A stretch of DNA of 64,000 nucleotides from Microcoleus sp. EPA2. GTDB taxonomy: Bacteria > Cyanobacteriota > Cyanobacteriia > Cyanobacteriales > Microcoleaceae. The DNA lies in NCBI GenBank assembly GCA_020882975.1, contig JAHRFD010000003.1, forward strand, positions 68,732 to 132,731. The letters run 5' to 3'. Shown piece after piece: positions 45,363 through 50,261 of this stretch. Under the pieces are notes generated by a model. It was not told the DNA's origin and ran no database searches. It saw only the letters and a program-made list of their open reading frames with translations. A program made the position numbers and the translations under genes. How positions within the stretch are numbered: position 1 is the stretch's first letter; each line of letters begins with the position of its first letter.

Positions 45363-48300
45363 ATGACCAGCAGCTACAGCGCCGACCAAATTCAAGTTCT
45401 CGAAGGTCTCGAAGCAGTCCGCAAACGACCGGGGATGTACATCGGTACCACCGGCCCGCGAGGACTCCACCATCTAGTTTATGAGGTTGTTGACAACTCG
45501 ATCGATGAAGCGCTGGCTGGCCACTGCACCCACATCGAAGTTGACATCAACGCCAACGGTTCCGTTACCGTGACAGACGACGGACGGGGAATTCCGACCG
45601 GCATCGTTGCCAAAACTGGCAAATCGGGAATAGAAACAGTAATGACTGTACTCCACGCCGGCGGTAAATTTGGCGGTGGCGGCTACAAGGTTTCTGGAGG
45701 ATTGCACGGTGTAGGTATTTCGGTGGTGAACGCGCTGTCGGAGTGGGTAGAAGTCACCGTTTGGCGCGACCAAAAAGAACATTTACAGCGCTACGAAAGA
45801 GGCAATCCTGTAACCGAACTGAATGCTAAGCCCTACAAAGGAAATCGCACCGGCACTTCAGTTTCTTTCTTGCCAGACACTCAAATTTTTAGCACAGGCA
45901 TTGAATTTGATTACACTATACTTGCCGCACGTTTGCGAGAACTAGCTTACTTGAATGCGGGCGTTAAAATTACTTTTGGCGACCACCGTTTGGAACTGCT
46001 CAAAAGTGGCGAACCTCGCATCGAAACTTACTGTTACGAGGGTGGCATCAAGGAATACATCGCCTACATGAACCGCGAAAAGCAGCCTTTGCATGAAGAA
46101 GTGATTTACGTGCAAGGCGAACGCAATAACGTGCAAATAGAAGTGGCTTTGCAGTGGTGTGTGGATGCTTTTAGCGATAATGTTCTCGGTTTTGCTAACA
46201 ACATTCGGACGATCGACGGTGGCACGCACTTAGAAGGTTTGAAAGCTGTTTTGACGCGGACGATGAATTCGATCGCCCGTAAGCGCAACAAAATCAAAGA
46301 AAATGAACCTAACCTCGCCGGTGAAAACGTCCGGGAAGGTTTGACAGCCGTTATTTCTGTCAAAGTCCCCGACCCGGAATTTGAAGGTCAAACTAAAACT
46401 AAACTGGGAAATACTGAAGTTCGGGGCATTGTCGATTCCTTAGTTGGCGAAGTATTAACCGAATATTTAGAGTTTCGCCCCCAAGTAGCCGACGCTATTT
46501 TGGAAAAAGCAATTCAGGCATTTAAAGCGGCGGAAGCAGCCCGTCGCGCCCGCGATTTAGTCCGCCGTAAATCGGTCTTAGAATCGTCTCCATTGCCCGG
46601 AAAATTAGCGGACTGTAGCTCCAGAGACCCCGCCCTGTCTGAGATATACCTGGTCGAGGGGGATAGTGCTGGGGGCTGTTTTTTTTCATTTCAGGAAATA
46701 ATATTAGCTGACGGTACGACAAAAACTATCAAAGAGATAGTTGACGAACAAGCAGAAGGTAAAGAACACTTTTGCTACACGATTCGCGACAGTGGAAACA
46801 TTGGGCTTGAGCGGATAACTAACGCTCGGATGACTAAAACAAATGCTGAAGTCATCAAACTGACATTAGACAATGGGGAGACAATTACTTGCACTCCCGA
46901 CCATCTATTTATGTTGCGGGATGGCACTTACAGAGCAGCAGCAATGCTGACACCGGAAGATTCGTTGATGCCTCTTAACCGCAAGTTGTCTGAAAAAAAA
47001 TCAAACGGGCAAGGACTTAAGGGTTATGAAATGGTGTGGAATCCAAACACTGATAACTGGATTTACACTCATCTTTTATCGGATTTTTACAACCTAAAAC
47101 ACGGTGTCTATGAATCATCTGAGGGCAATCACCGCCACCATGTTGATTTCAACAAACTCAACAACAATCCGACAAATATTCAGCGATTGCCTGCTGAGGT
47201 ACACTTGGCTCTTCACCGCGCGAATCTTGAGAAAACATTGCACCGCCCGGATGTAATTGAAAAGAGCCGTCAAATTCACATGAGTGAAGAATTTCGGGCG
47301 ATGATGAAAGAGCGGATGCAGGAGCCGGAAACGCGGCAAATTCTTTCGGAACAAGCGAAAGCTCAGTGGGAAGATGAAGAGTATAAAGCTTACATGACGA
47401 AGAAGTGGCGCGAGTTTTACGATTCTAATGAAGCTTATCGCGAACAAAATCAGGAACTGTTGGATCGAGCGCAACAAGAATATTGGAGTTGCGAAGAAAA
47501 CCGTTTAGCTCAGTCGGAACGGGTTCGGAATCATTTTGCGAACAATCCTCAAGCGCGGGAAACTCTTTCACAACTTGCTAAAGAACAATGGCAAGATGAG
47601 AATTTATTAGAGTGGAGGCGTGAAAAAACGAAGGAACAGTGGACACCAGAGTTTCGCCGCAAACGCAAAGCTGCTTTGGATGAAACTTATTACCGCAAAA
47701 CTCTGGAAGCTTTGAAGGCTGTTGAGATGAAAATGGGCTGGGTTGATGTTGATTATTACAATCTCTATCGCCGAACCAAAAAAGATAAGTGTTTGTTGAA
47801 GTATGAGACTTTTTGCGATCGCTATTTTGGTGGAGACGCACTCTATGCTCGTCAAGCAGTTCGGAACTACAATCACCGCGTGGTCAAGATCGAAGCCGTA
47901 GCAGAACGCTATGATGTTTATGACATCGAAGTTCCCAACAGCCACAACTTTGCATTAGCTGCGGGAGTCTTTGTTCATAACAGTGCTAAACAAGGGCGCG
48001 ATCGCCAATTCCAAGCCATTCTCCCATTGCGGGGTAAAATCCTCAACATTGAGAAAACAGACGATGCCAAAATCTACAAAAATAACGAAATTCAATCGTT
48101 AATTACAGCCCTGGGTTTGGGCATTAAAGGCGAAGAATTCGATCCGGCACAATTGCGGTATCACCATATAGTGATTATGAGCGTAGCAGGGGACGAACCA
48201 ACACTGGTGATGGACGATACAGGACGCACCGAATTTGTCACCATTGGTGGGTTTATCGATGACTGCGTAGAAGGCCGCCGCGCTGCCGATCGATATCAAG

Positions 48301-50261: not shown

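What the first reader, a model, noticed from the sequence alone, without database searches (positions are those of the whole stretch)
45363..50261. GyrB split by two large inteins, both in catalytic TOPRIM motifs
Intein 1 sits after EGDSAGG and intein 2 one residue before TDADVDG. Only 66 extein residues separate them, and 986 of 1632 residues are intein. The first site is known in Synechocystis; having both sites occupied in one gyrB is unusual. Gyrase activity, hence supercoiling and perhaps growth, depends on two splicing reactions.
Basis: partly seen in the sequence, partly recalled or inferred. Interest (0 to 1): 0.72.

Follow-up and report, generated by a model that had tools for sequence, protein, structure and literature searches.

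The report
Two inteins in one gyrase gene
An essential cyanobacterial DNA gyrase gene carries two self-removing parasitic protein segments next to its active-site motifs; dozens of other species carry the same pair, and close relatives with none, one or both suggest that the pair was put together one element at a time.

Summary
One open frame (45363-50261, +) encodes a 1632-aa GyrB with a 435-aa Cys1 HNH-type intein after EGDSAGG and a 551-aa Ser1 LAGLIDADG/HTH intein directly before TDADVDG, 66 extein residues apart. It is the only GyrB found in the genome, so both splicings are very probably required; splicing was not shown. 'Unusual' is only partly right: the pair occurs in 4 of 29 congeneric genomes, in 27 of 50 intein-2-bearing genomes sampled in the order, and in 23 of 46 scorable intein-2 gyrBs of a GTDB scan. 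Congeners show all four states with exact empty sites. In the window's clade intein 2 is nearly uniform while intein 1 is absent or strongly divergent, and the window's intein 1 is a recombinant: the two elements have separate histories, as reported for neighbouring MCM inteins of haloarchaea. A lead: the serine codon just after site 1 is AGY in 16 of 16 intein-1-bearing and TCN in 13 of 13 intein-1-free congeners, either co-conversion or silent immunity, testable by a cleavage assay. A new member of a known kind, useful mainly as a natural experiment.

The parts
45363..46676 (+). gyrB N-extein, aa 1-438, ends EGDSAGG (TOPRIM motif; catalytic role recalled)
   Evidence: TIGR01059 1042 bits
46677..47981 (+). 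intein 1, 435 aa, Cys1 ... HN|Ser+1
   Evidence: exact empty site in congeners
46677..46976 (+). intein 1 N-terminal splicing (HINT) half, with TPDH block B
47130..47216 (+). intein 1 HNH core (HRHHVDF...LALH, intein aa 152-180)
   Evidence: seen in the alignment; Pfam HNH_3 (E up to 0.1) in 7 of 22 aligned intein 1 relatives, not in the window's own
47253..47735 (+). intein 1 helical region after the HNH core (intein aa 193-353), probable DNA-binding part of the endonuclease
   Evidence: model (ten-residue blocks pLDDT 59-91); function inferred
47453..47459 (+). recombination breakpoint inside intein 1 (before it closer to G400, after it closer to G386)
   Evidence: max chi-square 154, 0 of 5000 permutations as large
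47868..47981 (+). intein 1 C-terminal splicing half, ends VFVHN
46674..46676 (+). -1 Gly codon (GGC); GGA in 13 of 13 intein-1-free congeners
47982..47984 (+). +1 Ser codon (AGT); AGY with intein 1, TCN without, in the genus
47982..48179 (+). middle extein, 66 aa (SAKQGR...HHIVIM)
48180..49832 (+). intein 2, 551 aa, Ser1 ... HN|Thr+1
   Evidence: AlphaFold pLDDT 90.8; best PDB match 2cw7, PI-PkoII
48180..48539 (+). intein 2 N-terminal splicing half (TSSH block B)
48723..48860 (+). HTH_3 domain inside intein 2 (intein aa 182-227)
   Evidence: HTH_3 in 37 of 41 aligned intein 2 sequences
49089..49124 (+). LAGLIDADG motif 1 (LIWFLGWYVAEG), acidic residue present
49377..49412 (+). LAGLIDADG motif 2 (MAFLEGYFLGDG), acidic residue present
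49692..49832 (+). intein 2 C-terminal splicing half, ends LCAHN
49833..50258 (+). gyrB C-extein, 142 aa, begins TDADVDG (TOPRIM motif; metal-binding role recalled)
   Evidence: DNA_gyraseB_C

Best explanation
This is the only gyrB found in the genome, invaded at two neighbouring sites (198 bp apart in the empty gene) by two unrelated mobile inteins. The precursor (1632 aa) must lose both inteins autocatalytically to give a 646-aa GyrB: intein 1 by splicing from Cys1 to Ser+1, intein 2 from Ser1 to Thr+1 (inferred from intact motifs). Each intein carries its own homing endonuclease (HNH-type in intein 1; LAGLIDADG plus an HTH accessory domain in intein 2) that is under purifying selection and presumably cuts its own empty site (inferred). 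The pair was assembled one element at a time by homing and recombination between strains, not by joint invasion: intein 2 is shared by the window's clade, whereas intein 1 arrived, was replaced or was lost there independently of intein 2, and the window's copy is a chimera of two intein 1 lineages. Shown: anatomy, exact empty sites, single copy, separate histories, chimera, endonuclease constraint. Inferred: splicing, cutting, order of events.
For: Anatomy and motifs (models; folds). One GyrB C-terminal domain in the genome. Four states in 29 congeners: 4 both, 12 intein 1 only, 2 intein 2 only, 11 none; fewest changes on the extein tree 7 for intein 1, 3 for intein 2. Clade G000/G400/G386/G387 (extein support 100/100): intein 2 dS 0.016-0.121 against N-extein 0.129-0.188, but intein 1 dS 0.31, 0.35 and 0.72, and G387 has no intein 1. 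Chimera: 0 of 5000 permutations. Gain/loss model on 29 tips: sequential AICc 64.4; adding joint gain and loss 70.5, with joint rates estimated as 0. Across 24 double genes intein 1 and intein 2 distances are not significantly correlated beyond the exteins (partial r 0.10, 446 of 2000 permutations as large). dN/dS: HNH 0.11, LAGLIDADG 0.11, splicing 0.06-0.10, exteins 0.05.
Against: Splicing and DNA cutting are untested. 29 tips give little power against joint homing. In G386 versus G387 the direction (gain in one or loss in the other) is open, because their left flanks are identical for 344 nt up to one base before site 1. Intein 1 could have been ancestral in the clade and later replaced or lost. 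The window's own HNH core is not detected by Pfam, the intein 1 model is weak there (pLDDT below 50 at aa 150-173), and the stretch aa 356-397 of intein 1 is less constrained (dN/dS 0.21). A model in which one intein changes the gain rate of the other was not supported either (AICc 70.2).
Confidence: 0.78

Rival explanations
1. Joint invasion: the two inteins homed together as one unit, or the pair was inherited vertically from an ancient double-intein gyrB and lost piecemeal.
For: The pair is over-represented: 27 of 50 intein-2-bearing genomes of the order sample have intein 1, against at least 97 of 338 without intein 2 (Fisher p 0.0006; not corrected for kinship). In the overlapping 386-genome phylum sample: 5 of 8 against 37 of 378.
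Against: Within the genus there is no association (4 of 6 against 12 of 23, p 0.66), and only 3 independent pairs are available on the tree. Intein 1 and intein 2 histories differ in the window's clade. Sequential model preferred. With the loosest count (148 of 338) the order association vanishes (p 0.22).
Confidence: 0.12
2. The pair is a domesticated control: splicing of one or both inteins responds to redox, light or temperature and gates gyrase.
For: Precedent: in M. smegmatis DnaB, which has two inteins, one splices slowly and is redox-sensitive (PMC6195587, passages). Intein 1 uses Cys1 and intein 2 Ser1, so their chemistry could respond differently.
Against: 11 of 29 congeners lack both and 14 of 29 have one only. 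Both inteins keep constrained endonucleases, which points to mobile parasites. No data on conditional splicing.
Confidence: 0.06
3. Assembly artefact or dead gene.
For: 72-contig draft assembly.
Against: The frame is open over 1632 codons; three other congeneric genomes carry the pair (G400, G394, G386); purifying selection on the parts tested.
Confidence: 0.03

Closest known systems
[quoted passage not shown] abstract, sections 3, 9, 14 and passages read)
   Same: Two endonuclease-bearing inteins close together in one essential replication gene; all four occupation states among relatives; doubles more common than chance; sequential rather than joint homing favoured.
   Different: Archaeal helicase, two LAGLIDADG endonucleases, homing tested in vivo. 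Here a bacterial gyrase, one HNH-type and one LAGLIDADG/HTH endonuclease, nothing tested in vivo.
Synechocystis PCC 6803 GyrB (Ssp GyrB) intein and its engineered mini/split forms (PMC2794532, PMC3620165; passages read)
   Same: Cyanobacterial GyrB intein; the engineered peptide begins its extein part with Ser; shown there to splice as mini- and split intein in E. coli.
   Different: The Ssp sequence was not compared here; that it sits at site 1 and has a similar length is recalled. Whether Synechocystis has intein 2 was not checked.
PI-PkoII/PI-TkoII intein of Thermococcus DNA polymerase (PDB 2cw7)
   Same: Best sequence (E 4.5e-29) and fold match (E 9.7e-25) of intein 2; HINT plus LAGLIDADG plus HTH-like accessory domain; its host gene also has a second intein 85 residues away (PMC8966425, passages).
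   Different: Archaeal polymerase, different insertion site, about 20% identity in the structural alignment.
Two-intein DnaB of Mycobacterium smegmatis (PMC6195587; abstract and passages seen)
   Same: Bacterial replication protein with two different inteins.
   Different: One of the two is a mini-intein without endonuclease; conditional splicing demonstrated there.

Membership tests
Inteins (protein-splicing elements) | In-frame insertion in a conserved host protein with a known exact empty allele | tested here: met
   of 29 congeners, site 1 is empty in 13, site 2 in 23, both in 11
Inteins (protein-splicing elements) | HINT splicing fold, N- and C-terminal splicing motifs, Cys/Ser at 1, terminal Asn, Ser/Thr/Cys at +1 | tested here: met
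   (both); fold (intein 2; intein 1)
Inteins (protein-splicing elements) | Self-excision and ligation of the exteins | not testable with these tools
   no expression or protein data
LAGLIDADG homing endonuclease (intein 2) | Two LAGLIDADG helices each with an acidic catalytic residue | tested here: met
   (AEG and GDG present); LAGLIDADG_3 E 1.5e-8
HNH homing endonuclease (intein 1) | HNH motif | tested here: inconclusive
   motif visible and conserved; Pfam HNH_3 found in 7 of 22 relatives, best E 0.001, not in the window's copy
Homing endonucleases | Cuts the empty allele at its own insertion site | not testable with these tools
   inferred from dN/dS and patchy distribution
Sequentially assembled neighbouring-intein pair (MCM type) | Separate histories of the two inteins; no support for joint homing | tested here: met
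   low power with 29 tips and 24 double genes

The most novel reading that the evidence does not exclude
Silent immunity: in this genus a two-base synonymous switch of the serine codon right after site 1 (AGY to TCN), together with GGA before it, makes gyrB resistant to intein 1's endonuclease, so every susceptible allele has been invaded and every free allele is the silent variant. In the genus AGY is 16 of 16 with intein 1 and TCN 13 of 13 without, and of 597 variable extein positions the three most strongly associated are -1, +1 and +2. Outside the genus, alleles free of both inteins are AGY in 37 of 40, so AGY is not always invaded there; but intein-1-free alleles that carry intein 2 are TCN in 9 of 21 (6 of 16 counting cyanobacteria only). 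The rival reading is that AGY simply travels with the intein by co-conversion.
Probability: 0.25. Interest if true: 0.65.

Novelty: new member of a known kind. Interest (0 to 1): 0.42.

Why it matters
A genus with all four occupation states of two neighbouring intein sites in an essential gene is a bacterial counterpart of the haloarchaeal MCM system. It lets one ask whether neighbouring inteins invade one after the other, whether recombination makes new endonucleases, and whether a silent codon choice can protect an essential gene. It also matters for annotation: some databases name such GyrBs 'ATP-binding protein' or 'XRE family transcriptional regulator', and gyrB-based typing could be misled (inference).

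Tried and rejected
Rejected: 'both sites occupied is rare'. No sign of plasmid or phage carriage: no match in plasmids (whole gene, near mode only) or in phages (intein 2 protein), and one weak viral-contig match at 26% identity to the intein 2 endonuclease half. Weakened: strict mutual exclusion of the two sites (doubles are common). Weakened: AGY-with-intein as a general rule; outside the genus AGY is the norm also without intein 1 (25 of 25 with, 37 of 40 without, p 0.28), so the strong contrast is a feature of this genus and, less strongly, of intein-2-bearing alleles. Literature: in eight searches no listed title or abstract start, and no passage that I opened, describes a two-intein GyrB; most listed papers were not opened and the library holds open-licence papers only, so this is weak evidence of absence. 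PMC6390638 describes a GyrB mini-intein in Desulfonema ishimotonii, PMC4071816 lists cyanobacterial gyrB inteins, PMC9348778 removed 61 intein-containing GyrBs from its data set (passages). PMC3229294 was opened for a Microcoleus mention and has no gyrB. A search for DNA repeats in intein 1 gave one weak 20-nt family. Rfam gave no match in the window. Counts dropped: L116 (sequence gap) and L130 (contig edge) from the 48 gyrB intein-2 loci L102-L149; L150 and L151 (contig-edge fragments), L152 (masked) and L153-L156 (other sites) not scored.

Hand counts: the 97 of 338 is a minimum counted from the printed rows (95) plus G051 and G233, because the tool cut its list. 'Both' was assigned from open-frame length and an intein 1 row in the same gene. 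The 42 intein-1-bearing genomes are 25 full-length and 17 reduced inteins, judged from identity and frame length. The upper bound 148 of 338 is 175 genomes with any match minus 27 and includes other inteins.

Full report
OBSERVATION. The open frame 45363-50261 (+) is 1632 aa without a stop and matches the GyrB equivalog model TIGR01059 (1042 bits against a cut-off of 882). Cutting at the two junctions gives N-extein 438 aa, intein 1 435 aa, middle extein 66 aa, intein 2 551 aa, C-extein 142 aa: 646 aa spliced, 986 aa intein. The only correction is that intein 2 ends directly before the T of TDADVDG. The insertions are not an alignment fancy: 11 of 29 congeneric genomes have an uninterrupted 646-aa gyrB with exactly these junctions joined.

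ANATOMY. Intein 1 has Cys1, a TPDH block B, a C-terminal VFVHN and Ser+1; intein 2 has Ser1, TSSH, LCAHN and Thr+1. Intein 2 was modelled at pLDDT 90.8; its best solved relative by sequence and fold is PI-PkoII (2cw7), and it has HTH_3 in 37 and LAGLIDADG_3 in 41 of 41 aligned sequences. Both catalytic acidic residues are present in the window's copy; in the named relatives they are intact in 22 of 24 genes that also carry intein 1 (L116 included) and in 18 of 22 that do not (L141, truncated, and L130, intein 1 state unknown, not scored). Intein 1 was modelled less well (pLDDT 77.3, weak at the HNH core): a HINT domain close to bacterial mini-inteins with an HNH motif (HRHHVDF...LALH) and a long helical region, probably the DNA-binding part (inferred). 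Pfam sees HNH_3 in 7 of 22 aligned intein 1 sequences, not in the window's own. Endonuclease parts are under purifying selection (dN/dS about 0.11 HNH, 0.15 helical region, 0.21 for intein 1 aa 356-397, 0.11 LAGLIDADG, 0.11 HTH region; splicing parts 0.06-0.10; exteins 0.05), which suggests that both endonucleases still work.

CONSEQUENCE FOR THE HOST. The genome has one GyrB C-terminal domain and one full-length GyrB match. From established knowledge that gyrase is essential, both splicing reactions should be required. Both inserts lie at TOPRIM motifs, so unspliced precursor should be inactive (inference).

HOW COMMON. Genus: 4 both, 12 intein 1 only, 2 intein 2 only, 11 neither, of 29. Phylum sample of 386 genomes: intein 2 in 8, intein 1 in 42, both in 5 (hand count). 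Order sample of 388: intein 2 in 50, of which 27 with intein 1 (hand count; overlaps the phylum sample). Named GTDB scan: 46 scorable intein-2 gyrBs, 23 with intein 1, among them Microseira wollei, Planktothrix rubescens, Calothrix, Spirulina, Kamptonema, and outside cyanobacteria three Chloroflexi genomes (one Chloroflexales, one Anaerolineae) and Desulfonema limicola. Intein 1 in these doubles ranges from 435 aa down to about 150 aa. Joint occupation exceeds independence in the order (27 of 50 against at least 97 of 338; p 0.0006) and phylum (5 of 8 against 37 of 378; p 0.0005), not within the genus (4 of 6 against 12 of 23; p 0.66). These tests ignore kinship, and with the loosest upper count (148 of 338) the order result disappears (p 0.22).

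SEPARATE HISTORIES. On the extein tree the window's gene groups with G400, G386 and G387 (Tychonema bourrellyi FEM_GT703, L102) at 100/100. Within this group intein 2 is less diverged than the N-extein (dS 0.016-0.121 against 0.129-0.188), but intein 1 is far more diverged (0.31, 0.35, 0.72), is of a shorter 409-aa type in G386, and is missing in G387. The middle extein of G400 is also more diverged from the other three (dS 0.39-0.48). Intein 1 therefore arrived, was replaced, or was lost independently of intein 2. The window's intein 1 is itself a chimera: of 212 informative sites the first part follows G400 rather than G386 and the last part follows G386, breakpoint at intein nt 777-783, max chi-square 154, 0 of 5000 permutations as large; the last 388 nt of intein 1 and the first 28 nt of the middle extein are identical to G386, while the 5' part is only patchily identical to G400 (85-100% by window). 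One scenario that would produce this (inference) is homing of intein 2 from a double donor into an intein-1-only recipient with a conversion tract reaching into intein 1; against it, intein 2 of the window is closer to G387 than to G386, and a patch of the middle extein differs from G386. A four-state gain/loss model fits no joint gain (AICc 64.4 sequential, 70.5 with joint terms), and across 24 double genes the two inteins' distances are not significantly correlated beyond the exteins (partial r 0.10; 446 of 2000). With 29 tips this is weak support.

A SILENT MARK AT SITE 1. In the genus the +1 serine codon is AGY in 16 of 16 intein-1-bearing genes and TCN in 13 of 13 intein-1-free ones (p 1.5e-8); the -1 glycine is GGA in 13 of 13 free and 1 of 16 bearing genes. 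Among 597 variable extein positions only -1, +1, +2 and one distant position reach p < 1e-4 for intein 1, and none does for intein 2, which is present in only 6 genes. AGY and TCN differ by two bases, so single silent steps do not connect them. G000, G400 and the distantly placed G398 also share 12 identical bases before site 1, which looks like a longer co-converted patch. Outside the genus the picture differs: intein-1-bearing genes are AGY (25 of 25; 21 of 21 named; at least one gene is in both sets), but so are 37 of 40 genes free of both inteins, whereas intein-1-free genes carrying intein 2 are TCN in 9 of 21 (6 of 16 in cyanobacteria; p 0.002 and 0.012 against 3 of 40; kinship not corrected). 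Two readings remain: the codon travels with the intein because the break is repaired from the donor (co-conversion), or TCN alleles resist cutting and are what remains where intein 1 circulates (silent immunity). A cleavage assay on both targets would decide. The 40 free genes were chosen by me from the printed rows (a cut list, best matches first), one per genus except two genera sampled twice.

COMPARISON WITH THE KNOWN. Each intein is an ordinary member of its class. The arrangement is a multi-intein gene like haloarchaeal mcm (PMC10643990: abstract, sections 3, 9, 14 and passages), where doubles also exceed expectation, joint homing is inefficient and sequential homing is favoured. Here the same pattern appears in a bacterial gyrase with two endonucleases of different families. 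The Ssp GyrB intein has been shown to splice as mini- and split intein (PMC2794532, PMC3620165; passages), which makes splicing of intein 1 likely; that it occupies site 1 is recalled, not tested. I met no paper on a two-intein GyrB in eight searches of an open-licence library (listed in Tried and rejected), but such proteins are already in public databases, some under other names.

VERDICT. Real, very probably functional, not rare, known in kind. Its value is as a natural experiment and in the unexplained silent codon mark.

Noticed in passing
G000 contig C4 58984-63381 (L100:985-5382, -): A second two-intein protein in the same genome: an adenosylcobalamin-dependent ribonucleotide reductase (TIGR02505) of 1465 aa with two intein N-terminal splicing regions.
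   Followed up: partly
G000 contig C9 (L101:895-5976, -): An sll1366-family Snf2 helicase ('intein-prone helicase' in NCBIfam) with one intein in its ATP-binding motif, distantly similar to the LAGLIDADG part of intein 2.
   Followed up: partly
one search hits P0034, P0035, P0116 and others: Intein-bearing GyrBs are named 'ATP-binding protein' or 'XRE family transcriptional regulator' in public databases, apparently because of length and the intein's HTH domain.
   Followed up: no
L106, L108, L109, L111, L117, L128, L138, L140, L144: These intein 2 relatives end in KN instead of HN before Thr+1, i.e. lack the usual penultimate His.
   Followed up: no
L141 (Hyellaceae CSU_1_1) and G577: Intein 2 frame appears broken (truncated frame; a TGA inside the second piece); decay or assembly error not settled.
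   Followed up: no
G395:C62:74012-74896 and G392:C253:9264-9680: Partial gyrB-like second frames (61 and 66% identity to the N-extein) in two intein-1-only congeners.
   Followed up: no
window 22693-24762 (+) and 39758-41887 (-): Two serine/threonine kinase plus WD40-repeat proteins.
   Followed up: no
window 5111-6775 (+): NB-ARC/STAND-like NTPase.
   Followed up: no
window 807-1089 and 6898-7137: Nearly perfect tandem repeats of 51 bp (5.5 copies) and 49 bp (4.9 copies).
   Followed up: no
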